Source: Desulfarculus baarsii DSM 2075
Lineage (GTDB): Bacteria > Desulfobacterota > Desulfarculia > Desulfarculales > Desulfarculaceae
Direction: 5' to 3'
Assembly: GCF_000143965.1 (NCBI RefSeq)
Contig: NC_014365.1
Location: 2,011,501 to 2,075,500 of the forward strand
DNA length: 64,000 bases
Shown here: positions 31,546-44,252 of the stretch, in pieces
Layout: each line of letters opens with the position of its first letter
How positions within the stretch are numbered: position 1 is the first letter of the stretch
Notes under the pieces: generated by a model
Seen by the model: the letters and a program-made list of their open reading frames with translations, nothing else
Told to the model about the DNA's origin: nothing
Database searches by the model: none
Translations under genes and position numbers: made by a program

Positions 31546-31979
31546 CTCGCGATCCTCCGGTGAAAACGTGTCAGGTACTCCTCGACAAAACGGCAGGCGG
31601 CCTGCCGGTCCGAGCAGAAGTAGACGGGGACACCGAAGTCGACGACGATGGAGGCGACCGTTCCGATCAGCGCGTGCGGGTGGGCATCGCTGCGGTAGCG
31701 GCCATCGACCAGATCGCGAAAGTTGCACTCGACAACCACACAGGCGGATTCGTAGGCGGAGAGCTTTTCCAGCTCGCGGTGAAACCGCTTGCGCCCCCGG
31801 ATGACGGTGGAGACGAAATCCGTCAGGGATTTGCGCTCCACCGCCACCCGTTCTTCGAGGCCGACCAGTGAGTAATCACCGGCGGGCAGCGCCTTGCGAA
31901 CCGCCGAAACCTTGTCGCTATCGAAGCTGTAGGGCTCCTGTTCGCGGGTGTCGACGACAACGGTGATCCGGTCCATCAT
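31497..31979 (-). CDS. ERCC4-domain nuclease
   Basis: 160 aa. The ERCC4 (XPF/Mus81-type) nuclease signature is complete: VVVDTREQEPYSF, AGDYSLVG, VAVERKSLTDFVSTVI. The family motif is GD-x(n)-V-ERK-x3-D. No helix-hairpin-helix follows, so this is a minimal structure-specific nuclease as in many phage recombination modules. Its start shares one nucleotide with the stop of the DUF669-type gene, and its 3' end overlaps the helicase gene by 49 nt. Confidence 0.85.
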   Translation of the reverse strand: MMDRITVVVDTREQEPYSFDSDKVSAVRKALPAGDYSLVGLEERVAVERKSLTDFVSTVIRGRKRFHRELEKLSAYESACVVVECNFRDLVDGRYRSDAHPHALIGTVASIVVDFGVPVYFCSDRQAACRFVEEYLTRFHRRIARCQKEMRVTRRDSGEE

Positions 31980-32452
31980 CAGAACGGGATCATGTCGTCC
32001 ATCGCCGCGCCGGGAGCCCCGGCATCGTCGGCCATGACAATGCGACGGTTGAAGTAGATGTTCTCGTTTTCACCGCGAGTGCGTTTGGTCACCTCCAGCT
32101 TGATGTTGAGAAGCTGCTCGAGGTGGCCCGGCAGGTCGGAGAGCTTCTGAAGCTGCAGCCCGCAGGTATAGAGGTCCTGCTTGAGCCACTTGATGTTCTC
32201 GTTGCTGGCCATGACGTTGTTGCGCCAGAGCAGACGGCCCTTGTGGGTCGGCGCGAGAATGCGCAGAGTCCACTTGAGCATGGGATTGCCCGAGGTCTGG
32301 GCGCGGGTCAGTTCGACCCGGTCGACGTTGACCTGGTACTTGCCGTCGGGGACGGCCTCGAACTCACGTTCCTCGACTTCGGCGGTTTCAAAGGCGTCGT
32401 CGAACTGCGCCAGGTCGAGGTTGCTGCTGGATTGGTTTTCGTAGTGTTCCAT
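31979..32452 (-). CDS. DUF669-type phage recombination-associated protein
   Basis: 157 aa, ATG at 32452 with AAGGAG upstream. The sequence (EREFEAVPDGKYQVNVDRVELTRAQTSGNPMLKWTLRIL, GRLLWRNNVM, LLNIKLEVTKRTRGENENIYFNRRI) follows the DUF669 pattern: a beta-rich core with a conserved 'P.G.Y.v.v...e...t..gnpml.w.l.il' start. The acidic first 30 residues are flexible. Members are encoded beside single-strand annealing or Sak4-type proteins and may bind single-stranded DNA. Confidence 0.75.
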   Translation of the reverse strand: MEHYENQSSSNLDLAQFDDAFETAEVEEREFEAVPDGKYQVNVDRVELTRAQTSGNPMLKWTLRILAPTHKGRLLWRNNVMASNENIKWLKQDLYTCGLQLQKLSDLPGHLEQLLNIKLEVTKRTRGENENIYFNRRIVMADDAGAPGAAMDDMIPF

Positions 32453-32464
32453 GGTCGGATCTCC

Positions 32465-33235
32465 TTACTGATGAGGTTTCGCCGCCGCACTCGCGGTCGG
32501 CTCCGGCTTCGGCCGGGCGGCACTCGCCGCAGCTCCGGCTGCCGTGTTGTTGAAGGCTTTAACGAAGCTCGAAAAATCGAGGGGGATGACTTCGGGGAGT
32601 CGCCCGGTGCGGTCACCAGCGTCGTAGTTGGGACTGGGCTTGGTGCGCATCACGCGCTGCCAGACCGGCTTGCCGTCGTCGCCGGTTTTCATGTCCAGAT
32701 CGCAGAACAGGATCAGATCCACCAGGCCGGTGACCAGCTTCCGCGCCTTTTCCGGCAGCGTCGGCACGATGCGGGTGTGTTTGCCGGTCCGGGTCTCAAT
32801 GTCCCGCTCCTGGGAGTGGGAGATCAGGATCAGCCCGTAGGGCAGGAAGGCCAGCTTGTTGATGACGCGCTGGAACTCGTTGTTGATCAGCGCGTAGCCC
32901 TTGCCGTAGCCCAGGTCGGATTCGTGCTCGATCTTGAATTTCTTGCAGACGTAGTCCGAGCACATCTTGTAGGCGTTATCCACCGTGTCGACGACGATGG
33001 TCTTGAACTCATGCTTGCCCTCGGCGATCTCGGCGCAGGCCTGCAGAAGGTCGTCCCAGCAGGTGATCGGGGTCTGGAACACCTCCAGGGCGTTCAGGCC
33101 CGGCTCGGTCGCCAGGAACAGTGCGTCATCGGCCTTGGAGCACCAGGTGCTCTTGCCGATCTTGCTCGGGCCGTACACCAGGGCGGTGAGGTCCGAGAGC
33201 GTGTGTTTGGGTTTGCTTTTGGTCTTGGGAAGCAT
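32465..33235 (-). CDS. RecA-like phage ATPase (Sak4/AAA_24 type)
   Basis: 256 aa. Walker A LVYGPSKIGKSTWC (about residue 20), Walker B-like TIVVDTVDNAYKMC (about 80), then GLILISHSQERDIET (about 130). This is the RecA-like core of the phage nucleotide-binding / Sak4 group. The C-terminus (last 40 residues) is Ala/Pro-rich and probably a flexible protein-binding tail, as in single-strand annealing partners. Encoded with nuclease and DUF669 genes in one recombination module. Confidence 0.82.
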   Translation of the reverse strand: MLPKTKSKPKHTLSDLTALVYGPSKIGKSTWCSKADDALFLATEPGLNALEVFQTPITCWDDLLQACAEIAEGKHEFKTIVVDTVDNAYKMCSDYVCKKFKIEHESDLGYGKGYALINNEFQRVINKLAFLPYGLILISHSQERDIETRTGKHTRIVPTLPEKARKLVTGLVDLILFCDLDMKTGDDGKPVWQRVMRTKPSPNYDAGDRTGRLPEVIPLDFSSFVKAFNNTAAGAAASAARPKPEPTASAAAKPHQ

Positions 33236-33261
33236 GGCTTCGTCTCCTTATGGTTGGGATT

Positions 33262-34278
33262 TCAAAACACCGGAGCGGCGTCTTCACCGGCTCCGTCCCG
33301 CAGCTCTTCGTGCGGGGCGATCCGTTGGAAATGGTTTTCAATGACGTTGGGGTTGCCGCCCGAGCGGCAGAGCTGGAAGTAGGCGCAGGGCCTTCCGTAC
33401 TGGAAGCAGTAGCTGGTGTTGCGGTAGAAGGTGTCGCGCCGACGGGCGTCGAGCATGGCCTTGGAGAGTTCCCACAGCTCCGCCCGCAGTTCCTCTAACT
33501 GGTCGCGGGAGATGTAGAGCACCTCGCGATGGAACATTCCCGGCTCGAGGTACTTCTCCTGGAGCCGTTGCTGGAAGGTGTCGTCGTCCTCCGGCAGCTT
33601 GCGCTTGGCGCTGCTCTTGCCGGTTTTCGACTTGGCGATCAGCTCCGCCCGGCGGGCCTCGAACTCGGCTTCGGTCTCACCCTTGCCCTGGCGCAGCTTG
33701 GCCTTGACCAGGACGTTGTAGATGATGCCGCTGACCGTGATGCCGAGGGTCTGCTCCAGGTACCAGGCGTAGAGGATGATCTGGAAGTCGGTCCACAGCC
33801 GTTCCAGGTAACTGGCGTCGATCTGTGAAGCGGTTTTGTGTTCCAGCAGGAAATACTGACCATCTTGACGGACGATGCCGTCCACCTTTCCGGCGAGAAT
33901 GAAACTGCGCGAGGTCGCGCCTGTCGCCGGGTTGACGATGGGACCTTCGAAGGTCTTTTCGAGCGCGACGACCTCGAATTCTTCGGCCGGGTAGTGTTCC
34001 GCATAGGCGCTCATCATGGCTCGGGCGAGATGCCAGTCGGCCTGTTGATGATCGTCCTGCGCCCGGTTCGGATATGTCCGGTCGATGTGGTCGAGGACCT
34101 TGGCCAGATCCCGCTCGCCGTGCCAGCACTCCAGGCAGTCGTGAATGACCGAGCCGAAGGCCAGATTAGGGTCACGCTCGAGCGGCACCAGCTCGTCGAT
34201 GTAGCGCCACTTGCAGGCCATGCGGCAGTTGCGGAACAGCCGCCACATGGAATAGGTGGTGGTCATCAGCTCGCTCAT
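33262..34278 (-). CDS. PD-(D/E)XK exonuclease, Cas4/RecB-like
   Basis: 338 aa. The nuclease core is visible: FGSVIHDCLECW (conserved His of RecB motif), GKVDGIVRQDGQYFLLEHKTA (motif II/III, D...EHK), and ILYAWYLEQ (Q/Y motif). A Cys near the N-terminus (CRMACKW) plus three near the C-terminus (SYCFQYGRPCAYFQLC) match the 4-Cys iron-sulfur arrangement of Cas4/AddB nucleases. It overlaps the upstream gene by ATGA. Probable 5'-3' or single-strand exonuclease feeding the RecA-like ATPase. Confidence 0.85.
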   Translation of the reverse strand: MSELMTTTYSMWRLFRNCRMACKWRYIDELVPLERDPNLAFGSVIHDCLECWHGERDLAKVLDHIDRTYPNRAQDDHQQADWHLARAMMSAYAEHYPAEEFEVVALEKTFEGPIVNPATGATSRSFILAGKVDGIVRQDGQYFLLEHKTASQIDASYLERLWTDFQIILYAWYLEQTLGITVSGIIYNVLVKAKLRQGKGETEAEFEARRAELIAKSKTGKSSAKRKLPEDDDTFQQRLQEKYLEPGMFHREVLYISRDQLEELRAELWELSKAMLDARRRDTFYRNTSYCFQYGRPCAYFQLCRSGGNPNVIENHFQRIAPHEELRDGAGEDAAPVF

Positions 34279-34613
34279 ACCGCCACCCCCGCTGTAGCGG
34301 CGGCGGGCGCTGCGCGATGCTTGGAGGCGCAGGCGCAGCCCGACGGCTGGGTTCGTTCGATCAGGACCGAGCGTTCGCCGTATTCCTTGGTGGCGAAGCC
34401 GGTGAAGATGCGGGCGAGATCACTGCCGACATCGGTGGAGGCGTCGATCACGCAGGTGCGTCGGGCCTTGTCCAAATTGAACCGGCTCTCCATCCGCACA
34501 CGGGAACGGCCATGCAGGCTTTCGACGGCCAGCATCGCCAGCATGAAAGTGTCTTCCAGTTCCTGGGCCGGGACCGACTCGTCAAAACGGTACTTGTAGG
34601 TGTCGTGAGTCAT
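34275..34613 (-). CDS. Unknown protein, first gene of replication operon
   Basis: 112 aa, ATG at 34613 with GGAG upstream; overlaps the nuclease gene (ATGA). MTHDTYKYRFDESVPAQELEDTFMLAMLAVESLHG is followed by ARRTCVIDASTDVGSDLARIFTGFATKEYG, an alpha/beta pattern suggesting a small enzyme-independent domain. The last 20 residues are Ala-rich. Not assigned to a named family by me. Its place directly behind promoter P7 marks it as the leader gene of the replication unit. Confidence 0.6.
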   Translation of the reverse strand: MTHDTYKYRFDESVPAQELEDTFMLAMLAVESLHGRSRVRMESRFNLDKARRTCVIDASTDVGSDLARIFTGFATKEYGERSVLIERTQPSGCACASKHRAAPAAATAGVAV

Positions 34614-34683
34614 GGTTGAACTCCTCTTTCGTTCAGGTTCAGATTTCCGAGGCCCCGGATAGCCGCACCATGCGGCACGGTGC

Positions 34684-34714
34684 TTACTTACCGGAGCCGG
34701 AGCCGATGCGTCGG
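34684..34714 (-). promoter_or_regulatory. P7: phage sigma-type promoter element, replication operon
   Basis: Minus strand CCGA-N16-CCGGTAAGTAA immediately after the stop codon of the sigma-factor gene (34718) and 71 nt before the first replication gene. So the sigma gene is followed at once by a promoter of the kind it is proposed to recognise. Confidence 0.7.
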
Positions 34715-34717
34715 AGA

Positions 34718-35302
34718 TCACAGGTAGTCCTCGAGCCCGGCCTCGCGGAACGCGTCCCGCAGCTTGCTCAGCCGGTCGTAGAGGGTGGTTCTGGGAATGC
34801 CCATCTCCCGGGCGACCTCGGCCATGGTGCTGTCGTGCAGGCGCACGCACAGATCCCGGAGCTCTTCCGGCAGCGAGGCGATGGCCCGGTCGAGATCCAT
34901 GCGGATCTCATGGGCGAGACGCTCCCTTGTCTCGCGGTTGCCGCCTCCCAGAGAGCCTTCGCTGTCCAGGAAGTCGATCCGCTCGGTGGTGTCGCCTTCA
35001 CCGTTGTCGAGGGGTTCGTTGAGTGACGTTTGGCAGAGCCGCCAGTCCCGGCATTGGGCGAACCGGGCCTCCAGAATGGTGGAGATGTGACGTTCGACGA
35101 TCCGGGCCATGAAGGTGGTCTTCTTGGCCTTGGCGGGATTGAAATGCCGCATCCGCTGCAGCAGATCGATCATCAGTTCCTGTTCGAGGTCGGGTCTGTC
35201 GTCCTCGGTGAATCCGGCCTTGCCTACGAGTTGACGTGCTTTGTGCCGAATGAGGTCGGCGGCATACTTGTCGATGCCGTCGTAAGAATTTTGTGAAACC
35301 AT
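34718..35302 (-). CDS. Phage-encoded sigma-70-family (ECF-like) sigma factor
   Basis: 194 aa. Residues about 35-75 are region 2 (DLEQELMIDLLQRMRHFNPAKAKKTTFMARIVERHISTIL), with the 'LxQE...LL...f.p.k..f..f' pattern of ECF sigma factors. Residues about 140-185 are region 4 (LPEELRDLCVRLHDS, then the helix-turn-helix TMAEVAREMGIPRTTLYDRLSKLRDAF). Region 1 and region 3 are absent, as in ECF factors. An acidic linker of about 30 residues joins the two. The ribosome site GAGGAGG is part of a perfect hairpin (35308-35326) and a branched fold lies just upstream. No copy of the CCGA/GGTAAGTAA element precedes it, so it should be transcribed from another promoter and may then activate P1-P8. Confidence 0.88.
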   Translation of the reverse strand: MVSQNSYDGIDKYAADLIRHKARQLVGKAGFTEDDRPDLEQELMIDLLQRMRHFNPAKAKKTTFMARIVERHISTILEARFAQCRDWRLCQTSLNEPLDNGEGDTTERIDFLDSEGSLGGGNRETRERLAHEIRMDLDRAIASLPEELRDLCVRLHDSTMAEVAREMGIPRTTLYDRLSKLRDAFREAGLEDYL

Positions 35303-35307
35303 CGGGG

Positions 35308-35326
35308 CCTCCTCGGAGCGAGGAGG
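35308..35326 (-). promoter_or_regulatory. Hairpin sequestering the sigma gene's ribosome binding site
   Basis: Minus strand: CCTCCTCG, loop CTC, CGAGGAGG. The 8-bp perfect stem contains the GAGGAGG Shine-Dalgarno sequence, which lies 5 nt before the ATG at 35302. In this form the site would be hidden, so translation of the sigma factor is probably controlled. Confidence 0.65.
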
Positions 35327-35334
35327 AGGTCCGC

Positions 35335-35435
35335 GTGGGTGTCGGCACGGGCCAGATCACAGGACAAAGCTGTCGCGTGGGCGAAGGGGTCGCAGGTACG
35401 CCGCCAATTGCCGTATTCGGCTCGGCGACACCCAC
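35335..35435 (-). ncRNA. Structured leader upstream of sigma gene (riboswitch-like, family unknown)
   Basis: The ends GTGGGTGTCG and CGACACCCAC (35335-35344 and 35426-35435) pair perfectly over 10 bp and enclose about 80 nt. Inside lie at least two small hairpins: GCCG-AATA-CGGC (35410-35421) and GACA-GCTT-TGTC (35363-35374), giving a closed multi-branched shape. It is followed 8 nt later by the ribosome-site hairpin of the sigma gene, an aptamer/expression-platform order. I cannot match it to a known riboswitch class. The opposite strand would fold similarly, so orientation is inferred from the gene. Confidence 0.5.
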
Positions 35436-35497
35436 AACAGCCTCCGCCATGCGTCCAGCTTGTTGTCCAGTGTCTAAGGGTTCAGGTCGTTACGTGT

Positions 35498-35824
35498 TCA
35501 GGCTGCCCGTTCCTCGATGCGCATCAGGAACGGGAGACCGTGCTTGATCTCGAGCAGGCAGACTTTTCCGCTGCCCATCTGCGCGAGGTGCTCCAGCAGC
35601 GTCACGACCTCTTGCTTGAGGATGAAGTCATCCTGGTCGCGCTCGGGCCGGGGACCGCTCTGTCCGCCCAGCTTGATCTCGCGCTCGATGACCGTGTCAG
35701 GGGTGAGTTCCGGCTCGCCGTCGCGGACCGGAATGTTGGTGATGCGGCCGAAGTTGATGTCCTGCATCAACTCGATGAGTCGCCGCTTCGGTGGGGTGAG
35801 GTGTGCTTTGCTTGTCTGGTTCAT
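35498..35824 (-). CDS. Small phage protein upstream of sigma factor
   Basis: 108 aa, ATG at 35824 with GGAGG upstream. N-terminal basic helix (LTPPKRRLIELMQDINFGRITNIPV), acidic middle, and C-terminal helix-strand (ILKQEVVTLLEHLAQMGSGKVCLLEIKHG). Located between the repressor module and the sigma gene, so probably an early gene. Function unknown; the INFGRI...VRDGEP element recurs in prophage early-region proteins in my reading, but I cannot name a family. Confidence 0.6.
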   Translation of the reverse strand: MNQTSKAHLTPPKRRLIELMQDINFGRITNIPVRDGEPELTPDTVIEREIKLGGQSGPRPERDQDDFILKQEVVTLLEHLAQMGSGKVCLLEIKHGLPFLMRIEERAA

Positions 35825-35891
35825 GCCGAACCTCCTTCATTTCTGGACCGACCGGGAGACAGGTCCGGCATGAATTTCCCGGGTGGCGGTC

Positions 35892-35910
35892 GTGAACTTT
35901 TTGTGTTCAC
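35892..35910. promoter_or_regulatory. Palindrome upstream of the early gene
   Basis: GTGAAC-N7-GTTCAC, 6-bp perfect arms, 68 nt upstream of the ATG at 35824. It lies in the 320-nt gap (35825-36144), which holds no gene and otherwise contains an AT-rich stretch (36015-36040) and the terminator at 36084-36125. It could be an operator for transcription of the 108-aa gene and the sigma gene. Confidence 0.4.
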
Positions 35911-36083
35911 CAGACCTGTCACCCTGCTTTGGCGAATTTTCGTTGCGACCCCGAAAAACGCCCTGGCTCAAGGAGGAGGAAAGCCCGTAAGGCTCTGATT
36001 GGTGGTGGATTTACAGAGGAAAACTTTTTTAACTTTTTTTGCCCGGCCCCAGTGAAATTTCACCGGGCGGGCCTCCAAGACGC

Positions 36084-36125
36084 AAAAAGCCCCGATCCAG
36101 AATCCTGAATCGGGGCTTTAGTTTT
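36084..36125 (-). terminator. Rho-independent terminator after the repressor operon
   Basis: Minus strand AAAGCCCCGAT / ATCGGGGCTTT (11-bp stem, 12-nt loop) followed by TTTTTG. It ends the repressor operon 20 nt after the last stop codon and separates it from the early genes. The stem is symmetric, with TTTAGTTTT on the other side, so it can also stop + strand transcripts. Confidence 0.85.
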
Positions 36126-36144
36126 GCCTGGTAATGAAGGGTGG

Positions 36145-37209
36145 TCAGTAGACCTCAGCACCTTCCGGGAGGATGCGGAACTTACACCGGTAGGTCTTGG
36201 TGTCCTTGACCCATTCGATGGGATCGTCATCGAGCCGGAAGAATTCCCGCAGGTGCTTCGACAACTCTTGCTTCTGTTTCTTCAGTTTGTCCGACGCGTA
36301 TCGGCTGCGCCAGTCGATCTCGCCACGGGAGTTGGCAAACCCCTCAAGCAATTTCCATTGCTCGGTAGGATTGCCATTCTTCCTGCTCGCCATTCCCATT
36401 TGCGTATAAGTGTATCGACCGCTCTGATCTCCCGCCCATATTGTGACGGTATGGCCATCACGGAATTGAATCTTGATTTGTGGCCATGTGGTGCCCGGCG
36501 GTGTCGGGAAAAACACTGTGCCGCCTGAATCCGGCTCAGGCACCTGGCCCATAAGGGGCGCGAATATCTCAGTCTTGTCCCGACGGGTCAAGAATCGTGG
36601 GGCATCACCCAGGTACAGATCTTCGTTCAGCGCAATGAAAAGGCTGCCTTTCTGCGCCAGCAGTGTTTCAACTACAGGACTCAGATGAAGGCGAGTGGGC
36701 GCGATTAGGACAAAGGGTTTGGGGGTCGAAAGGCATAATGATCGGACGACCTCGGTCAGCGCATCCTTGCTGTCCTGCATCGTCAGCACAACCGGAAAGT
36801 CCATCCCCGCCGTGGGTATGAAATCGCCCAGTCTCCATGTGTAGGGCAGGCCATCGAGTTTCGAGTCTCGGTGTTCTATTCCCAAGGCCTCGCAGATAGC
36901 GCCATTGATGGCTGACTGCTTGAGCCGGTAGATCAGGGTCTGCTTTGTGGTGAGTTGGACGGCTGTATATTCCTTTTCATTGCAGATGGCCCGGATGTTG
37001 GTCTTCGCATGGGTGACAACACTCCGTGGGCATCCGAGGCCACATTCCGTTGGGCAATCCACGGCGGTCGCGTGATTCTTGGTCAGTTGAAGGAAGTGAT
37101 CCCGAAACAACGGGTACCGGTCCCAACCGGAGAGCGCCTTGTCCCAATCGAACAGCGCCGCCGACTTTCCAGGCAATCTCTCCAGATATGCCCAGAAGGG
37201 ATCACTCAT
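36145..37209 (-). CDS. Unknown protein B of the lysogenic module
   Basis: 354 aa from the ATG at 37209. The N-terminal 90 residues hold a Cys cluster, CPTECGLGCPRSVVTH plus IRAICNE, possibly metal binding. The centre is an alpha/beta domain (FPVVLTMQDSKDALTEVVRSL, KPFVLIAPTRLHLSPVVETLLAQKGSLFIALNEDL). The C-terminal 60 residues (SDKLKKQKQELSKHLREFFRLDD) look like a winged-helix ending. Its start overlaps the stop of the preceding gene (8 nt), so the pair is co-translated and co-expressed with the repressor. I do not recognise the family. Expression in the lysogen suggests superinfection immunity or defence, as inference. Confidence 0.6.
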   Translation of the reverse strand: MSDPFWAYLERLPGKSAALFDWDKALSGWDRYPLFRDHFLQLTKNHATAVDCPTECGLGCPRSVVTHAKTNIRAICNEKEYTAVQLTTKQTLIYRLKQSAINGAICEALGIEHRDSKLDGLPYTWRLGDFIPTAGMDFPVVLTMQDSKDALTEVVRSLCLSTPKPFVLIAPTRLHLSPVVETLLAQKGSLFIALNEDLYLGDAPRFLTRRDKTEIFAPLMGQVPEPDSGGTVFFPTPPGTTWPQIKIQFRDGHTVTIWAGDQSGRYTYTQMGMASRKNGNPTEQWKLLEGFANSRGEIDWRSRYASDKLKKQKQELSKHLREFFRLDDDPIEWVKDTKTYRCKFRILPEGAEVY

Positions 37210-38368
37210 CCGACGCCCCTCCGGCTCCGACAATAAAGCCCCTGAGTCCGAGCCAGCGCTCGATAACCTCGGCATCACCATCCCGCTTGAATTGCGCTCG
37301 GTTACCTGAACTCAAGGTGACCGACCTAGGCGTCTTCGAACCGTCGAATTTAATCTGGAAGCTTGCTTTCACGATTTTTCCGCCTGCGGGAAGGGATTTT
37401 TCCCGATCACGAAGGGAGGCAAACAGATCCTCTGACCGACGAATCTCGACGTCCTTATGAGCGCCACCCCAAAAGACCTGAACTTCCTTCAGCCTGACAT
37501 ACTCGATGCCATCGACGTCGTCACATAGGAGCGCGTCCTCACCAATTTGCCGCAAAGGTTCCAGGTCAAATCGGCTGCGCTCGTTGAAAAACTCTTCGTC
37601 TCCGAACAGGTGGAATCCGAATTTCTTGCGGTAGAGCTCCTTCTCCCCCTTGGTTTCGGCGTTCATTCGGATTTCCCCGATGACGGGGTTGTAGGCAAGC
37701 ACGTCGAATTTTTCAGGGCGGAAGTATTGGCTGGTGGATTCACCGGCCTCAATGACCGCTTCACGGGCATAGGGCTTACCGTGGCGCACGAGGAACCATG
37801 TGTGGCCTTCCTTCGGATAGACGAACACCTTGGAATACTTGCCCCGACGCTTCTTGGAAAACCATTCGTCAAGATCGGCTTCGAGGGCCGCGAGGGTTTC
37901 CTCCGATGGCAGCACGAAATCCGGCAGCGGGTTTTTCTTGGTCTTGAAATACTCGAAGGACCTGACGTTCATGAAGAACTGTTCGGCGTGTACCTTCTCG
38001 ATGATTTCCCGGTCAGCCATCCAGACCTGGATCGCCAAGTCTGCCGGTGCGGCGTTTTCCCCGATCTCCACGTCGATGTCCGTTCCAGCGATCTCATCCT
38101 GAATGGAATCAAAACCCTCGGGGGTCGAGACTTCATTGACATAAAACAGCGCCTCGGCGAGATCATCCGGGGTCGTACTGTCTGGCGTCAGCAAAAGGTG
38201 GCTGAGGGCGTTGTAGTCCAGTCCATCTTCCTGCTGAACTGGTGGCAACTCTACGCCGCGAGCTGAAAAATAGGCGGCATGAGGCTCCAGAAAGGCAATG
38301 AGATGCTTCCTGTCGATTCGCCGGAGCATCTCCGGCTTCGAAAAGCGGCGTAGGTTGAAAGTTGCCAT
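37202..38368 (-). CDS. Unknown protein A of the lysogenic module
   Basis: 388 aa, ATG at 38368 with AGGAG upstream. The N-terminus FNLRRFSKPEMLRRIDRKHLIAFLEPHAAYF is helical; the middle (GKYSKVFVYPKEGHTWFLVRHGKPYAREAVIE, FDVLAYNPVIGEIRMNAETKGEKELYRKKFGFHLFGDEEFF) is beta-rich; the last part (LKEVQVFWGGAHKDVEIRRSEDLF, GKIVKASFQIKFDG) may be a second beta domain. No catalytic signature is evident to me. It lies 47 nt after the LexA-like repressor gene in the same operon and overlaps protein B. Of all genes in the window, these two are the best candidates for an undescribed lysogen-expressed system. Confidence 0.6.
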   Translation of the reverse strand: MATFNLRRFSKPEMLRRIDRKHLIAFLEPHAAYFSARGVELPPVQQEDGLDYNALSHLLLTPDSTTPDDLAEALFYVNEVSTPEGFDSIQDEIAGTDIDVEIGENAAPADLAIQVWMADREIIEKVHAEQFFMNVRSFEYFKTKKNPLPDFVLPSEETLAALEADLDEWFSKKRRGKYSKVFVYPKEGHTWFLVRHGKPYAREAVIEAGESTSQYFRPEKFDVLAYNPVIGEIRMNAETKGEKELYRKKFGFHLFGDEEFFNERSRFDLEPLRQIGEDALLCDDVDGIEYVRLKEVQVFWGGAHKDVEIRRSEDLFASLRDREKSLPAGGKIVKASFQIKFDGSKTPRSVTLSSGNRAQFKRDGDAEVIERWLGLRGFIVGAGGASDE

Positions 38369-38414
38369 CAAATACTCCTGTCGTTTTGTCGTTATTCGTC
38401 CATGTCTGTCTCGG

Positions 38415-39038
38415 TTAATTCCGTTTCCATCCAACGACCTTGCCTAAAACTCGAAGGTCATCCTCCGGCCTGATCCGGATCTTTCTTACCTCCGGGTTCT
38501 CGGGCACCAATTCGATGAGCTCGTCTTTGATTTTCAGCCGTTTGACGGTCGCCTCGTTGTTGAGCAGCGCTACAACGATGTCACCATCCTCGGCGATGGG
38601 CTGCTGCCGCACGATGATCAAATCGCCATCGTTGATACCGGCACCGATCATGCTGTCACCCACCGCACGGAGTGCGAAGTGCTGTCCGGAACGAACGACG
38701 TCCGACTCGACCAGCACTTGGCCGGTGATGTTCTCCTCGGCCAGGATGGGATGGCCAGCCGCCACCATACCCACAACAGGTACTGAAACCAGAGAGGCAG
38801 CCATCTCGCTGGGGCGACGGGCGACGGCAATGCCTCGCGACTTCCCGTCCTCCCGCTTCAGGTATCCCTTGCGCACAAGTTGATTGATTCGGTCGTGGGC
38901 ACTCGCCGGGCTGATTTCAAAGATCTCGCTCAGTTCCTTCACCGTTGGAGGGAAGCCCTTGGCATCGACGAAACGACATATCGCTTCGAGCGTTTTCCGC
39001 TGCAACGGCGTTATCTCATCCGTTTTCGCTTTGCCCAT
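38415..39038 (-). CDS. LexA-like phage repressor (S24 family)
   Basis: 207 aa from the ATG at 39038 (GGAG upstream). The winged helix-turn-helix (about 10-70) resembles LexA: PLQRKTLEAICRFVDAKGFPPTVKELSEIFEISPASAHDRINQL. A cleavage-type site VVGMVAAGHP lies at about residue 92. The S24 catalytic Ser is in GDSMIG (about 130) and the Lys in ATVKRL (about 166). All elements for RecA-stimulated self-cleavage are there, so induction by DNA damage is expected. It controls the module from a promoter with an operator at 39102-39119 and sits divergent to the integration genes. Confidence 0.9.
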   Translation of the reverse strand: MGKAKTDEITPLQRKTLEAICRFVDAKGFPPTVKELSEIFEISPASAHDRINQLVRKGYLKREDGKSRGIAVARRPSEMAASLVSVPVVGMVAAGHPILAEENITGQVLVESDVVRSGQHFALRAVGDSMIGAGINDGDLIIVRQQPIAEDGDIVVALLNNEATVKRLKIKDELIELVPENPEVRKIRIRPEDDLRVLGKVVGWKRN

Positions 39039-39094
39039 GGCGTCTCCATTTCTGTTGAAAGACAAAAAGGCGCGATGCGCCAGCAAACCCTAAT

Positions 39095-39122
39095 AATATA
39101 AACCTGACGCATATCAGGTCAA
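39095..39122 (-). promoter_or_regulatory. Repressor promoter with embedded operator
   Basis: Minus strand TTGACC (39117-39122), 16 nt, TATATT (39095-39100): a good sigma-70 promoter. Between and over these boxes lies the palindrome ACCTGA-N6-TCAGGT (39102-39119). A second half-site, ACCTGA, is at 39136-39141, directly next to the CCGA of element P8. Binding of the repressor would thus act on its own promoter and, by position, on the divergent P8. Confidence 0.7.
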
Positions 39123-39144
39123 GAAATAATCTCACACCTGATTT

Positions 39145-39175
39145 CCGACACTTCCATGAGCCCCTCGGTAAGTAA
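39145..39175 (+). promoter_or_regulatory. P8: phage sigma-type promoter element, integration module
   Basis: Plus strand CCGA-N16-TCGGTAAGTAA, same spacing as the six minus-strand copies but in the opposite orientation, in front of the + strand genes starting at 39340 and 39617. This is the key directional control: the element flips with the direction of transcription. Confidence 0.7.
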
Positions 39176-39339
39176 GGCCTGAAGAAAGCCGGTTTGAAAC
39201 CGGACGAGCAGTTAGAAACCAGATAACCGACCAGAGGCGGAGCTGAGGCGGTTGTGGGTGCCATCGAACGCGCATCCCGACCGCCACCGTTTTCTGGCAT
39301 CCACACCATCCAGTCCCCCGGTCCCACCGGAGGTGTTCG

Positions 39340-39582
39340 ATGTTGGATGTACAGGAAATGAATGATGGGCCGGGGACGGATGACCTTGGCGAAAATGGCA
39401 AACCCGGCCGCCTGTCGGGTGAGGCGAGGCTCCAGTCAGCCGCCTCCATTCTGGCCACTGCGATCCTGCGCCGAAAGGCCAAAAAAGCATGTGAAGGCAG
39501 TGAGTTAGAGATTTTCGAAGATTCTTCCCCTGTGCTCGGAGAAGGACTTGATTCATTGCCGGAACAGAGCATTCATTCATGA
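39340..39582 (+). CDS. Small ORF at head of integration module
   Basis: 80 aa, ATG at 39340 with GGAGG upstream. Acidic N-terminus and Ala-rich helix (SGEARLQSAASILATAILRRKAKKAC), then acidic tail. Coding support is modest; the ribosome site and position 165 nt after P8 favour a real gene. Small genes of this kind often precede the DUF2924/serine-recombinase pair. No function assigned. Confidence 0.5.
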   Translation: MLDVQEMNDGPGTDDLGENGKPGRLSGEARLQSAASILATAILRRKAKKACEGSELEIFEDSSPVLGEGLDSLPEQSIHS

Positions 39583-39616
39583 CAACTCGTCCGGAAACCA
39601 AAATAAGGAGTTGAAA

Positions 39617-40141
39617 ATGAATGAGTTACAGAATGTCGCCACGGGCGGCAAGAATCAGGACCGAACCCGAAACTCAGTCCTTCGGCAGATGGCCCTGCTG
39701 CAATCCATGTCCCTGGAACAGCTCCGGGAAAAATGGCTCGACCTCTACGGAGAAGAGCCACCCCAGTACAAGAAACAATTCCTCATCAAGCGGCTGGCCT
39801 ATCGCATCCAGGAGCTTTTCTACGGCGGGCTGTCCGAACAGGCTAAGGTCCATCTCCAGCAGGTCGCCAAGGAGGACCCGGTCGCCACTGTCAATCGACG
39901 CATCCCAGAGGAGCGGAAATCTAACGAGGCGATCCTGCCCGGGACCAGACTGGTGCGGGTATGGAACGACCGGCGCTATGAGGTGATCGTCCTTGCCGAT
40001 GGCTACGAGTTTGAAGGCCGCACCTTCCGGTCACTCAGCGCGGTGGCCAGAGAGATCACCGGGACGCGCTGGAACGGGAAAGTCTTTTTCGGACTGAAGA
40101 AGGTTTACGGCAGAAAAGCCGAGGGAGGTTCGGATGCTTGA
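39617..40141 (+). CDS. DUF2924 protein
   Basis: 174 aa, ATG at 39617 with AAGGAG upstream. The central motif MSLEQLREKWLDLYGEEPPQYKKQFLIKRLAYRIQELFYG and the later RLVRVWNDRRYEVIVLADGYEFEGRTFRSLSAVAREITGTRWNGKVFFGL are the standard DUF2924 features. Members are encoded next to large serine recombinases in proteobacterial prophages and integrative elements, and are thought to assist. The gene overlaps the recombinase gene by 8 nt. Confidence 0.88.
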   Translation: MNELQNVATGGKNQDRTRNSVLRQMALLQSMSLEQLREKWLDLYGEEPPQYKKQFLIKRLAYRIQELFYGGLSEQAKVHLQQVAKEDPVATVNRRIPEERKSNEAILPGTRLVRVWNDRRYEVIVLADGYEFEGRTFRSLSAVAREITGTRWNGKVFFGLKKVYGRKAEGGSDA

Positions 40142-41720
40142 TAACAGCAATGTCGCGCCGGGCAAAAACAAGACCCTGCGCTGCGCCATTTACACCCGCA
40201 AGAGTCATGAGGAAGGGCTCGAACAGGAGTTCAACTCGTTGGATGCGCAACGGGAATCGGCGGAACACTATATCGAAGCCCAGAGAATGCGTGGCTGGAC
40301 GGCTCTGCCGGATCGCTACGACGATGGTGGTTTCTCGGGTGGGAATATGGAGCGTCCGGGGCTGCGTCGCCTGCTGGCGGACATCGATGCCGGGAAGATT
40401 GACGTGATCGTGGTCTACAAGGTTGACCGCCTGTCCCGCTCGCTGCTGGACTTCATGAAGATGATCGACCTCTTCAACGAGAAGGGTGTCAGCTTCGTCT
40501 CGGTCACCCAGCACTTCAGCACCACCGACCCCACCGGCCGGATGTTTCTCGGCATCCTGATCACCTTCGCCCAGTACGAGCGGGAGGTCATCGCCGAGCG
40601 TATCCGGGACAAGGTGGCGGCAGCCAAGCGCCGGGGAAAATACTGCGGTGGCGTGCCCATCCTCGGATACGACGTCGACCGGGATAACAAGAAGCTGCTG
40701 GTCAACCCGGATGAAGCCAGGACGGTACAGTACATCTTCCGCCGCTTCATCCAGATCGGCTCGGCCAAGAAACTGGGCCAGGAATTGAACGAACAGGGAT
40801 ACCGCACCAAGGCCTGGACCACCAAGAAAGGTAAGGTGCGCGAGGGCTCCGAATGGAACACCGCCCATATCTACCGGCTGCTGAACAACCGGATCTATAT
40901 CGGCGAGATCGCCCACAAGGACCGTAGTTACCCTGGTGAGCACGAAGGGATCATCGACCGGGCGACCTGGGACAAGGTTAAGGCCATCCTGGAGGACAAC
41001 AAACCGGTCAAGGTTTCCATGGCCAGAACCAAAATGGTCGCCCCGCTGAAAGGCGTCATCCGCTGCGGCCACTGCGGATGCGCGATGGGTCCGACCTACG
41101 CTCGCAAGAACGGCCGCCACTACACCTATTACATCTGCCAGAAGGACAGCAAGCGGACCGTGAGCCGGTGCCCGCTCAAACGAATTCCCGCCGGGGACAT
41201 CGAGCAGGCCGTGATTGAGCAGTTGAGCGCGGTGTTTCGCACGCCGACGCTGGTGGCCAAAACCTTCTTCGCGGCCCGGGACATCGAGCAGGCGGAGCGG
41301 GAGCGGCTGCTCAAGCAGAAAGCCCAGCTCGAGATGGAGCTGTCGCAGGCGAGGGAGCAGGCACTCGAACTGATGAAACCCGGCAGCGATCAGCCGGGCA
41401 AGGCCGAGATGCTCACGACCGTCAACCGCCAGGCGGTCGATCTCTCGAAACAACTGACGCACGTGAGCGAGCGATGCAGAGCCTACCGGGGGAACAGCAT
41501 CACGGAGCAGGATGTCTCGGAGGCCTTCCAGAATGTCGAGGGCTTCTGGGAAGACCTTTTCCCGGTGGAGCGAAACCGGCTCATCCGCCTCCTGGTGGAT
41601 AAGGTGGAGATCCGGGAGACCGGAATCAATATGGAGCTGCGCACCAACGGGCTGACAACACTCATCGCCGAGCTGGCTGGTCTGGCCTGCGAAGTCACCG
41701 AACGGAGGGTAAGCCGATGA
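40134..41720 (+). CDS. Large serine recombinase (prophage integrase)
   Basis: 528 aa, ATG at 40134 with GGAGG upstream. The resolvase domain has the nucleophile region CAIYTRKSHEEG (Ser about 18), and VYKVDRLSRSLLDF; the recombinase domain and zinc ribbon (RCGHCGCAMGPTY, then a second Cys pair YICQKDSKRTVSRC) follow, then a coiled coil (about 380-430). This is the full serine integrase layout. It lies at the end of the prophage next to ssrA and probably performs integration and excision. The 3' end overlaps the next gene by 4 nt. Confidence 0.92.
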   Translation: MLDNSNVAPGKNKTLRCAIYTRKSHEEGLEQEFNSLDAQRESAEHYIEAQRMRGWTALPDRYDDGGFSGGNMERPGLRRLLADIDAGKIDVIVVYKVDRLSRSLLDFMKMIDLFNEKGVSFVSVTQHFSTTDPTGRMFLGILITFAQYEREVIAERIRDKVAAAKRRGKYCGGVPILGYDVDRDNKKLLVNPDEARTVQYIFRRFIQIGSAKKLGQELNEQGYRTKAWTTKKGKVREGSEWNTAHIYRLLNNRIYIGEIAHKDRSYPGEHEGIIDRATWDKVKAILEDNKPVKVSMARTKMVAPLKGVIRCGHCGCAMGPTYARKNGRHYTYYICQKDSKRTVSRCPLKRIPAGDIEQAVIEQLSAVFRTPTLVAKTFFAARDIEQAERERLLKQKAQLEMELSQAREQALELMKPGSDQPGKAEMLTTVNRQAVDLSKQLTHVSERCRAYRGNSITEQDVSEAFQNVEGFWEDLFPVERNRLIRLLVDKVEIRETGINMELRTNGLTTLIAELAGLACEVTERRVSR

Positions 41721-42139
41721 AAATGAAGCCGACCATTACCGTAGCCGACAACGGCAACCTGCAGATCCACATCCCGATGCTGATCCGGCGCATGCGCGGC
41801 CGCAAGACGGTCATCGCTCCCCAGGCCCTGGATGGAGATATCCCCGGAGCGCAGGAACCGGTGCAGTCCGCCGTCCTTCAGGCGCTGGGAAGGGCCTTTT
41901 CCTGGGCCGACATCCTCGAATCCGGCCAGATCAAGTCCATCAGCGAGCTTGCCCGTACCCTCGACGTCGATGGCTCGTATGTGGCCCGCATCCTCAAGCT
42001 AACGACCCTGGCCCCCGACATCGTCGAAGCCCTGATCAACGGCGAGGAACCCAACGGGCTCTCGCTGGCCAAGCTGACCCAGACCTTTCCCGAGGACTGG
42101 GCCGAGCAGCGCCGCCAGTTCGGCTTCGCCACCGACTGA
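41717..42139 (+). CDS. HTH protein paired with serine recombinase
   Basis: 140 aa, ATG at 41717 overlapping the recombinase stop. N-terminal basic part (PMLIRRMRGRKTVIAPQALDG) and a C-terminal ParB/KorB-like helix-turn-helix (IKSISELARTLDVDGSYVARILKLTTLAPDIVEALINGEEPNGLS). This companion recurs in DUF2924-recombinase loci and may act as directionality or regulatory factor, unproven. It is followed by a strong terminator. Confidence 0.75.
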   Translation: MKMKPTITVADNGNLQIHIPMLIRRMRGRKTVIAPQALDGDIPGAQEPVQSAVLQALGRAFSWADILESGQIKSISELARTLDVDGSYVARILKLTTLAPDIVEALINGEEPNGLSLAKLTQTFPEDWAEQRRQFGFATD

Positions 42140-42163
42140 CGACCGAACCGGAGACCACCACAG

Positions 42164-42195
42164 AGAGCCGACCATCAGCGTCGGCTCTTTTACTT
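42164..42195 (+). terminator. Rho-independent terminator of the integration module
   Basis: AGAGCCGAC / GTCGGCTCT (9-bp perfect stem, 7-nt loop) followed by TTTTACTTT, 25 nt after the stop of the HTH gene. It marks the end of the prophage genes. The stretch 42196-42494 holds no gene I can support and must contain the prophage/chromosome junction, unless the junction is at the tmRNA end itself. Confidence 0.88.
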
Positions 42196-42494
42196 TAGGG
42201 GTGGGAAACCGGAGTTGACCACGCTTCTTTTCATGGGCGAAGCGGGCGATTTCGAAAAAAACGTCCGGTTGCGGCATCGAACGATGACCTAAGACAACCG
42301 CCAAAAATGGCAATCAGCCGCAAACCCATATCAATCAAGGATGTAGCTTTCCGGACGAGCTTCGGACTTGGTCCGGAGAAAACAGAGAATCAGGGGCCAA
42401 ACAGAGAAAGAAAGGCGGGAGGATGGGGAGAATCGATGGTGCGAAGAGGTGCTTTGGAAAGATGTGAAACGGGCGCAAACCCTTTAGAAACAAG

Positions 42495-42546
42495 GGGAAA
42501 AAGAAAACCCGTCACCCCGGAGAATGACCCCAGAGAGACGGGTTTG
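42495..42546 (-). terminator. Terminator of ssrA
   Basis: Minus strand AAACCCGTC / GACGGGTTT (9-bp stem with an inner G/C-rich part) followed by TTCTTTTT, 12 nt downstream of the tmRNA CCA end. Confidence 0.85.
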
Positions 42547-42557
42547 TCTTTTCTAAC

Positions 42558-42910
42558 TGGTGGAGGCGGGGGGAATCGAACCCCCGTCCGAAAGCTTTCA
42601 GCCCAGGCTTCTACATGCTTATCCCTTGCTTGATCTCATCGCCAACGCCCCCAAGGGCAGGGGAGCCAACGACCAGCCTCACATGTTATTTTGGTCGAAG
42701 GGCCTATGTGGCCGAACCCTCAACCTATCCCGCTAGTCGACGCTCGGTTCCGGTTCCGCGGGAGAGTACCGGGCGAACGATAGCCTTAAGCGGCTACAGC
42801 GTAATTGTAATCGTCTGCGATTACTTTAGTTCCCACCGAATAACGGGTCAGCAGGATCCCGGCATGCTACTCTGAGCGTCAACTACCTCCGTCGAAACCA
42901 TGTCGCCCCC
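42558..42910 (-). ncRNA. ssrA: Transfer-messenger RNA (tmRNA)
   Basis: 353 nt. 5' end GGGGGCGACATGGTTTCGAC and 3' end with the T-arm (GGGGGTTCGATTCCCCC) and CCTCCACCA are canonical, and pair in the tRNA-like acceptor. The tag frame reads GCA GAC GAT TAC AAT TAC GCT GTA GCC GCT TAA, giving ADDYNYAVAA, with the usual ALAA-type protease-recognition end as AVAA. A promoter-like TTGCGG-N17-TATCAT precedes it. ssrA 3' ends are common phage integration targets, and the prophage lies immediately 3' of it. Confidence 0.97.
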
Positions 42911-43082
42911 AAAAACTTCTTTACTAATGATATAGCCTGGCGGAGCCGTCCGCAAGCCGGTCCGAGACATTACGCGTATCATTATGCATTTTAAGGGGTT
43001 GACAACTTGTTCCAGATTATGCATATTCGCTGTGGCGCATTATTTGAATCCTGTCCGTTCATCTAATACAAGGAGTGTGAGA

Positions 43083-43388
43083 GTGGCCCTGACCAAGGAT
43101 CATATCATCAGCGAGGTCTTCGAGCGCACTCAGCTCCCCAAGAGCCGTTCTCGCGAAGTTGTTGAAACCACGCTGGAAATCATCAAGAACAGCTTGGCTG
43201 ACAGCGATGATTTACTGATCAGCGGTTTTGGCAAATTTCTGGTCAAGGACAAGCGCGCCCGTCGTGGCCGCAATCCGCAGACCAAGGCCGACATGAAACT
43301 TCGGGCCCGCAAGGTGGTGGTGTTCAAGACCTCCGGCGTCCTGCGCAAGCACCTCAACGGCGAAGAGGATTTGTCGGAACAACAATAA
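43083..43388 (+). CDS. ihfA: Integration host factor alpha-like HU-family protein
   Basis: 101 aa from the GTG at 43083 (AAGGAG at 43069-43074). ALTKDHIISEVFERTQLPKSRSREVVETTLEIIKNSL and GFGKFLVKDKRARRGRNPQTKADMKLRARKVVVFKTS follow the HU/IHF pattern, including GRNP at the DNA-intercalating loop. The N-terminus and length favour IHF alpha over HU. Divergent from ssrA. The alpha/beta distinction is probable, not certain. Confidence 0.88.
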   Translation: MALTKDHIISEVFERTQLPKSRSREVVETTLEIIKNSLADSDDLLISGFGKFLVKDKRARRGRNPQTKADMKLRARKVVVFKTSGVLRKHLNGEEDLSEQQ

Positions 43389-43418
43389 GCGCGCTCGTGC
43401 GTTGGCCCATCACCGGAT

Positions 43419-43463
43419 CACCCGCCCACGCGGCCGTCTGGCTTTGCCCGTGGGCGGGTTTTT
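43419..43463 (+). terminator. Terminator of ihfA
   Basis: ACCCGCCCACG / CGTGGGCGGGT with an 18-nt loop and a TTTTT run, 30 nt after the ihfA stop and just before the end of the convergent rlpA gene. Confidence 0.85.
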
Positions 43464-43484
43464 GGGCCGTGGCCGCCCAACCCT

Positions 43485-44252
43485 CTACCAAACCACCAGA
43501 AAAGCTTGCTCAAAGCCCGACGAGCGCAGGCTCGCCTCCAAGCTTTGGGCCTTGTTCAGATCCTGCTCCTTGCCCACCCGCACGCGGTAGAAGCGCTTAT
43601 CGCCGTGGTCGTAGTTGACCACGTTGACCTCGCCGTATTTGGCGCGCAGGCTGGCGGCCAGACGCCAGGCGTTGCTTTCCTGTGTGAACGCGCCGACCTG
43701 CACGGTAAAGGGACCCCAAGGGGCGGAGGAGGGCGAGGGGATCTGGCCGCCGGGCAACTGGTCTTCACGATAGCCCAAAGCCAGGACTTCGACGCTGGCC
43801 GTGCCCGGGCCGATCATGTCGATCTCGCGGGCGGCGGCCTTGGAGAGGTCGATCACCCGATCGGAGACGAATGGCCCGCGGTCGTTGATGCGCACCACCG
43901 TGGATTTGCCGTTGGATGTGTTGGTCACCTGGACGTAGGTGCCAAACGGCAGCAGTTTGTGGGCGGCGGTCATGGACTCCATGTCGTAGATTTCGCCATT
44001 GGACGTGCGCTTGCCGTGAAACTGTCCGCCATACCACGAGGCCACGCCAGTTTCCTTGAAACCGTCGGCGTTGGGCAGTGGGTAGTATGTCTTGCCGAAA
44101 ACGGTGTATGGCTTGGTGGTGACCCTGTCGGATGGCTTGGTCGGCGGCGGGACGCTGGGGGTCTTGGCGCAGCCTACGAGGGTCAACAGGGCCATGCCGA
44201 CAAGGCATGCCACGATAATCGCTTTGGGCCAAACAATACCGTTGCGGTGCAT
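43485..44252 (-). CDS. rlpA: RlpA-family septal lipoprotein with SPOR domain
   Basis: 255 aa. Lipoprotein signal with lipobox LVGC (Cys about 28). The double-psi beta-barrel (about 70-160) has [25 protein letters not shown] and [22 protein letters not shown], with the catalytic Asp of lytic transglycosylases in NDRGPF. A C-terminal SPOR domain (about 175-253: [28 protein letters not shown]) binds denuded septal glycan. Acts at the septum or outer membrane in cell separation. Divergent from the MscS gene. Confidence 0.93.

What the first reader, a model, noticed from the sequence alone, without database searches (positions are those of the whole stretch)
39095..39175. Repressor operator embedded between sigma-70 boxes and abutting the phage promoter P8
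ACCTGA-N6-TCAGGT spans the spacer of the repressor promoter; a further ACCTGA half-site ends 3 nt before the CCGA of P8 on the other strand. One regulator could shut both its own gene and the phage-sigma-driven integration module, a compact lysis/lysogeny switch combining two polymerase types.
Basis: partly seen in the sequence, partly recalled or inferred. Interest (0 to 1): 0.5.

Follow-up and report, generated by a model that had tools for sequence, protein, structure and literature searches.

The report
Prophage repressor's own control site
The palindrome is real and is almost certainly where a virus-borne LexA-like repressor turns down its own gene, but the extra half-site beside the virus's own promoter is not conserved, so relatives do not support the idea that one repressor shuts both sides.

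Summary
The motif is as described. ACCTGA-N6-TCAGGT (39102-39119) fills the spacer of a sigma-70-like promoter reading a LexA-family gene (38415-39038, -); it is unique in the 3.66-Mb genome. P8 (CCGAC-N17-GGTAAGTAA, 39145-39175, +) belongs to a set of eight sites found only in the prophage region.

The dyad is conserved, with changes in both halves. It lies within 50 bp of P8 in 22 of 22 related rows where that promoter is divergent from P8 (20 with a repressor hit; in L022 behind inserted genes; in 2 the contig ends first). It is absent at P8 in 8 of 8 rows without a repressor hit and 5 of 5 where the repressor lies downstream of the integrase. The extra ACCTGA occurs in 6 of 23 operator-bearing loci and in 3 of 3 rows where a MarR-type gene replaced the repressor.

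Best reading: an autoregulatory operator heading a lambda cI-rexA-like operon (repressor, RdgC/RexA-fold protein, unknown partner), back-to-back with a phage-sigma promoter of the integration module. No second operator was found in the prophage, so a direct master switch is unsupported. Competition of two polymerases over a 22-bp spacer is possible, untested.

The parts
39102..39119 (.). Operator dyad ACCTGA-N6-TCAGGT in the spacer of the repressor promoter
   Evidence: in relatives
39117..39122 (-). -35 box TTGACC of the repressor promoter
   Evidence: TTGACC in 22 of 22 divergent relatives
39095..39100 (-). -10 box TATATT of the repressor promoter
   Evidence: TATATT in 21 of 22 divergent relatives, TATGTT in L163
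39136..39141 (+). Extra ACCTGA half-site beside P8; judged non-functional or at most lineage-specific
39145..39175 (+). P8: phage-sigma type promoter CCGAC-N17-GGTAAGTAA before the integration module
38415..39038 (-). LexA-family repressor, 207 aa, LexA HTH plus S24 protease (start ATG 39038 chosen by eye)
37202..38371 (-). Second gene of the repressor operon; model has an RdgC-like fold (a fold also reported for lambda RexA)
36145..37209 (-). Third gene of the repressor operon, no PDB fold match, no membrane segment by hydropathy
36084..36116 (-). Terminator-like hairpin and T run that would end the repressor operon (seen by eye; not in the list)
   Evidence: sequence
34718..35302 (-). Phage sigma factor (sigma-70/ECF superfamily), 194 aa
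39620..40141 (+). DUF2924 protein of the integration module
40134..41720 (+). Large serine recombinase (integrase)

Best explanation
The dyad is the autoregulatory operator of a LexA-family prophage repressor. A repressor dimer on 39102-39119 blocks sigma-70 polymerase at the repressor promoter and so sets the level of the operon repressor - RdgC/RexA-fold protein - unknown partner, a layout like lambda cI-rexA-rexB. DNA damage would cleave the repressor and release the operon. P8, back-to-back and 22 bp from the -35 box, is an independent promoter read by polymerase carrying the phage sigma factor; it drives the DUF2924-recombinase module once sigma is made. Coupling between the two, if any, is steric competition of two polymerases for one short spacer rather than a dedicated second operator. 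Shown here: sequence, conservation, gene content, predicted fold. Inferred: binding, repression, cleavage, sigma use, operon structure, competition.
For: Exact dyad unique in the genome. Dyad in the TTGACC/-10 spacer in the window and 22 of 22 divergent relatives (L163 with one mismatch). Upstream of the repressor start a site of 12 bits or more within 260 bp in 31 of 39 rows with upstream sequence; rows sharing one of the seven operators used to build the matrix match by construction, and five of the 31 (L143, L147, L176, L192, L193) have only 3-4 of 6 matching half-site bases. Both-sided changes that keep a perfect dyad: ACCTTA..TAAGGT (L027, L029), ACCCAA..TTGGGT (L157), GCCTGA..TCAGGC (L181). 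Operator goes with the repressor promoter, not with P8: 22 of 22 against 0 of 8 and 0 of 5. No other site above 9 bits in window 1-42560 (next best 8.9 and 8.7, inside genes). LexA equivalog, 178.5 bits, cut-off 110.95. Second operon gene: RdgC by Foldseek E 1.5e-6, Z 11.5 over 222 residues. A chromosomal LexA-like gene and a UmuD-like gene carry another shared box (by eye).
Against: No binding data. Loci are related, many near-identical, so counts are not independent trials. L142, L167 and L196 show no clear dyad; L022 and L153 carry it further upstream, so there another gene comes first. In L027 and L030 the operator is present but the 1,031 bases held beyond it show another gene and no repressor. 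The operator-P8 neighbourhood is kept in two gene arrangements, so selection on adjacency is not excluded. RdgC similarity has TM-scores of 0.33/0.41 and rmsd 6.3. One operon transcript is assumed.
Confidence: 0.74

Rival explanations
1. One reading: the repressor also occupies the ACCTGA beside P8 (imperfect dyad 39136-39153 covering the P8 -35 box) and shuts both promoters, a compact lysis/lysogeny switch.
For: Half-site 3 nt from CCGA; 12 of 15 bases of 39136-39150 match 39105-39119 in inverted orientation; centres 34 bp apart, about three turns, which would suit cooperative dimers.
Against: Half-site in 6 of 23 operator loci and kept in 3 of 3 rows with a MarR-type gene in place of the repressor; scores under 7 bits against 24.8 for the dyad; no operator at P8 when the repressor promoter lies elsewhere.
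Confidence: 0.12
2. SOS cascade: release of the repressor promoter lets transcription run through the operon into the sigma gene, so the operator gates the sigma factor indirectly, as host LexA gates SigN of pBS32.
For: In the window arrangement and in the co-directional one, repressor operon and g35498-sigma lie in one direction; no sigma-70-like promoter found directly before g35498 in the three loci scanned.
Against: A terminator-like hairpin lies between and a structured leader precedes g35498; in the L022 arrangement the repressor operon points away from sigma.
Confidence: 0.16
3. Repressor as activator: bound about 34-40 bp upstream of the P8 -35 box it recruits the phage-sigma polymerase, as GIL01 gp6 (a truncated LexA homologue) activates a late promoter.
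For: 77-aa LexA-HTH-only repressors in one sublineage resemble gp6.
Against: Distance to P8 differs by about half a helical turn between lineages; P8 exists without the operator in 13 of 35 rows.
Confidence: 0.04
4. Chance palindrome in an AT-rich promoter.
For: A perfect 6-N6-6 dyad appears in 1.4% of shuffles of this stretch.
Against: Kept with both-sided changes at the same promoter position in relatives.
Confidence: 0.01

Closest known systems
Leptospira interrogans LexA2 (PMC3789691, passages read)
   Same: Second LexA in a prophage-like region; [quoted passage not shown]
   Different: There the palindrome is adjacent to the putative promoter and the prophage is a remnant; here the dyad fills the sigma-70 spacer and faces a phage-sigma promoter.
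lambda cI-rexA-rexB immunity operon (PMC11077077, passages read)
   Same: Repressor gene followed by a protein with RdgC-like fold; the paper also names Iml3 and Chl4 as relatives of RexA, and the model of the second gene matches Iml3/Chl4-type chains.
   Different: LexA-type, not CI-type, repressor; third protein shows no membrane segment whereas RexB is a membrane protein; one operator, not six.
Bacillus phage GIL01 LexA/gp6 switch (PMC6182141, passages read)
   Same: Phage-encoded LexA homologue; short LexA-HTH-only form, like the 77-aa repressors of the L016/L126 type.
   Different: gp6 activates a late promoter; repression there is by host LexA.
SigN of pBS32 (PMC6751061, passages read)
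   Same: ECF-like sigma factor of a mobile element under a LexA-repressed promoter, with a regulon predominantly on the element.
   Different: Host LexA controls sigN directly; here no operator was found before the sigma gene.
Wolbachia phage WO sigma factor (search listing)
   Same: Distant homologue, 25-27% identity; three Wolbachia papers mention DUF2924 and recombinase (listing only).
   Different: Promoters not examined here.

Membership tests
LexA family (TIGR00498) | LexA HTH plus S24 domain above the curated score | tested here: met
   178.5 bits, cut-off 110.95; Pfam LexA_DNA_bind and Peptidase_S24
LexA family (TIGR00498) | Ala-Gly cleavage site and Ser/Lys dyad | tested here: met
   A94-G95, S129, K166 in the window protein; S129N in L026
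LexA family (TIGR00498) | RecA-stimulated self-cleavage and binding of its palindrome | not testable with these tools
   needs protein
Prophage LexA2-type autoregulator | Single palindrome in its own promoter, distinct from the host SOS box | tested here: met
   host box read by eye from two promoters only; binding not tested
CI-type master immunity repressor | Operators at lytic promoters away from its own | tested here: not met
   no second site above 9 bits in window 1-42560, none of 8 or more in L116
CI-type master immunity repressor | Present throughout the phage group | tested here: inconclusive
   no hit in L119/L130 and L128, which keep P8, integrase and sigma, but whether these are working phages is unknown
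lambda RexA-like exclusion protein (second operon gene) | RdgC-like fold | tested here: met
   (Z 11.5, rmsd 6.3, 222 aligned); RexA itself not among the rows shown
lambda RexA-like exclusion protein (second operon gene) | RexB-like membrane partner | tested here: not met
   highest 19-residue mean hydropathy of the third protein 1.27
Phage-encoded sigma-70/ECF-type sigma | Sigma-70 family score above cut-off | tested here: met
   TIGR02937 56.3 bits, cut-off 42.9; Pfam regions 2 and 4 below their cut-offs
Phage-encoded sigma-70/ECF-type sigma | Directs RNA polymerase to CCGAC-N17-GGTAAGTAA | not testable with these tools
   association only: 8 of 8 genome sites in the prophage region; -10 variants differ in phages with more distant sigma factors

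The most novel reading that the evidence does not exclude
A back-to-back pair of promoters read by two different polymerases (host sigma-70 and phage sigma) shares one 21-28 bp AT-rich spacer. Repressor bound in the sigma-70 spacer removes the host polymerase and thereby frees, rather than shuts, the phage-sigma promoter of the integrase, so the repressor biases the decision by promoter competition. The whole divergent block was inverted as a unit in a sister lineage without breaking this pair.
Probability: 0.12. Interest if true: 0.6.

Novelty: new variant of a known kind. Interest (0 to 1): 0.4.

Why it matters
It gives a firm operator consensus (about RACCTGA-N6-TCAGGTY, half-site bases changing on both sides in relatives) for a group of LexA-type prophage repressors in sulfate reducers and other bacteria. 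It places that repressor before an RdgC/RexA-fold protein or, in one relative examined, a QatC-like gene. It also shows, by natural replacement, that repressor and phage-sigma promoter are separable modules, which corrects an attractive but unsupported switch model.

Tried and rejected
Dual control through the 39136 half-site: rejected as a conserved feature. Other operators in the prophage: none found; at one mismatch the looser pattern hits one further genome place, the reversed control 12. Host LexA acting on this dyad: unlikely, since the chromosomal LexA-like gene and the UmuD-like gene share TGTATAGCAT upstream (by eye). Attachment site: tmRNA gene at 42558-42910, but no duplicated end was found to the left, so prophage borders stay open. 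Covariation of the g35498 leader: 0 of 21 pairs with both-sided change, inconclusive. Third operon gene: no PDB match with E up to 0.001. Second and third operon genes: no Pfam, PHROGs, PADLOC or NCBIfam hit. lambda RexA not among the rows shown. Second gene in phage records: no tblastn match; the repressor has 165 matching records, all under 60% identity, not followed. Papers: eight searches listed nothing on this phage group or promoter; the library is partial. Not examined: the 76 repressor loci, and 62 of the 69 (L191-L197 were used; L187-L190 repeat earlier contigs).

Full report
OBSERVATION. The palindrome ACCTGACGCATATCAGGT sits at 39102-39119, with TTGACC (39122-39117) and TATATT (39100-39095) around it on the - strand. 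The promoter scan alone is not above its shuffles (2 hits, mean 1.0, sd 1.0); conservation makes the promoter credible. The gene behind it starts best at ATG 39038 (GGAGA four bases upstream, by eye) and encodes a 207-aa LexA-family protein with LexA HTH and S24 domains. A further ACCTGA at 39136-39141 ends 3 nt before CCGA of P8. The exact dyad occurs once in the 3,655,731-bp genome. Allowing G or T at the fifth half-site base and one mismatch adds one place, 225 kb away; the reversed control has 12.

P8. CCGAC-N17-GGTAAGTAA occurs eight times in the genome with spacing free from 8 to 20, always N17, always within genome 2,004,296-2,050,675, the prophage region. Seven sites are in the window, six on the - strand and P8 on the +. 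A CCGTC variant lies further left (L116 12820). One site lies just behind the sigma gene (34718-35302, -). That gene scores above the sigma-70/ECF cut-off in NCBIfam and below the Pfam cut-offs. Two further regions of the same genome carry sigma relatives (44%) and, in the 18-kb stretches taken, three sites each of a changed -10 form (GGTATGTAT, GGTACGTAT or GGTAGGTAT), one of them before DUF2924.

RELATIVES. Sigma searches gave 17 viral loci, 55 genome loci and 6 new viral loci by alignment. Repressor searches gave 76 and 69 loci; of these only L191-L197 were examined. Three main gene arrangements appear. (a) Window type: integrase module to one side, repressor operon and sigma to the other, divergent around operator and P8. 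(b) L022 type: the divergent block is inverted as a whole, so P8 points through the integrase towards sigma. (c) L151/L153/L194 type: integrase, repressor, sigma all one way, with the operator-like site about 3 kb from P8; L148-L150 are ordered the same way but no P8 motif was called there. Other orders exist (for example L193).

OPERATOR AND P8. Of 57 rows with a DUF2924 hit, a P8-type site was called in 35 (one artefact row dropped); in the other 21 none was called, some lying at contig ends, others in more distant phages. In 22 of the 35 the sigma-70 promoter is divergent, and the dyad lies 42-49 bp before the -35 box in all 22 (21 fit ACCNNA-N6-TNNGGT, L163 has one mismatch). Twenty of these have a repressor hit; in L022 it comes after two inserted genes, and in L027 and L030 the contig ends 1,031 bases beyond the operator inside another gene. 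In 8 rows without a repressor hit in the stretch held (L119 and L130 are one contig; L128 is identical to L119 over 1,500 bases) none has the dyad at P8. In 5 rows with the repressor downstream of the integrase none has it at P8. Rows are related, so these are not independent trials.

OPERATOR AND REPRESSOR. Within 260 bp upstream of the repressor start a site of 12 bits or more was found in 31 of 39 rows. Seven operators built the matrix, so rows sharing them match by construction. L143, L147, L176, L192 and L193 match in only 3-4 of 6 half-site bases. Of the other eight rows, L022 and L153 have the exact dyad further upstream, L157 a perfect dyad of changed sequence in the promoter spacer, L197 one close to the start codon, L195 a partial one, and L142, L167 and L196 none clear. 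Perfect dyads with changed halves: ACCTTA/TAAGGT, ACCCAA/TTGGGT, GCCTGA/TCAGGC.

THE HALF-SITE AT P8. It is present in the window, L127, L132, L134, L137 and L161 (6 of 23 operator loci) and in L119, L128 and L130, which lack the LexA-like gene. In L119 the repressor, promoter and dyad are replaced, up to the shared GAAATAATC, by a MarR-family gene and an ArsP-type permease with a palindrome of their own (TGGTTGAC-GAT-GTCAACCA) over the new -35 box. So the half-site does not depend on the repressor, and P8 does not depend on the operator.

WHAT THE OPERATOR CONTROLS. Behind the repressor lie two genes found in many relatives. The second (37202-38371) gives a model of mean pLDDT 84 that matches E. 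coli RdgC best (Foldseek E 1.5e-6, TM 0.33/0.41; Z 11.5, 222 residues, rmsd 6.3), then CENP-N, CENP-L and Iml3/Chl4-type chains. The lambda RexA paper reports RdgC, Iml3 and Chl4 as relatives of RexA, states that the rex genes lie next to cI and share its promoter, and cites RdgC as reducing RecA-dependent LexA cleavage (passages). The third gene (36145-37209) has no PDB match and no membrane segment by hydropathy. In L126 the 77-aa LexA-HTH-only repressor is followed instead by a 262-aa protein and a QatC-like protein (PADLOC 2.5e-53). The dyad thus heads an operon whose content varies.

MECHANISM. Most likely (0.74): negative autoregulation of this operon, relieved by DNA damage where the S24 domain is intact. 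The -35 boxes of the two promoters are 22 bp apart in the window and 21-28 bp in relatives, closer than two polymerases normally fit (general knowledge), so competition is plausible but unproven. Direct control of P8 by the repressor (0.12) and an SOS cascade into sigma by read-through (0.16) remain open and testable.

KNOWN KINDS. An autoregulated LexA paralogue in a prophage-like region is known (Leptospira LexA2), as are a LexA-gated mobile-element sigma (SigN) and a truncated phage LexA homologue that activates (GIL01 gp6). The unusual part is the combination with a divergent phage-sigma promoter and a RexA/RdgC-fold neighbour.

Noticed in passing
window 35822-35990 (-): Conserved leader before g35498-sigma. 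In window/L022 types CATGCCGGACCTGTC can pair either with upstream GACAGGTCTGG or with the ribosome site and start codon; in L143/L148/L150/L155 the same core precedes an intrinsic terminator. It looks like a switch-type RNA; no Rfam match with E up to 1 at this place in the scan of 30000-43500; 0 of 21 pairs with both-sided change.
   Followed up: partly
window 39245-39260 (+) and 35429-35444 (-): GAGGCNGTTGTGGGTG occurs in the P8 leader and before the sigma gene; one-mismatch copies lie near the sigma genes of the two other prophage-like regions.
   Followed up: partly
L016, L018, L019, L031, L126, L133, L135: Repressor reduced to a 77-aa LexA HTH without S24 domain, operator kept; in L126 the cassette behind it holds a QatC-like gene.
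   Followed up: partly
window 36145-41720 compared with L022, L138, L155: The repressor-integrase block is inverted as a unit relative to sigma in a sister lineage, so P8 points there towards sigma.
   Followed up: partly
genome 2846000-2864000 and 2889000-2907000 (L117, L118): Two further prophage-like regions in the same genome with 44% sigma relatives and a changed promoter form GGTA(T/C/G)GTAT.
   Followed up: partly
L119 5874-7608: Repressor and operator swapped for a MarR-family gene and an ArsP-type permease with their own palindrome; L128 is identical over 1,500 bases there.
   Followed up: yes
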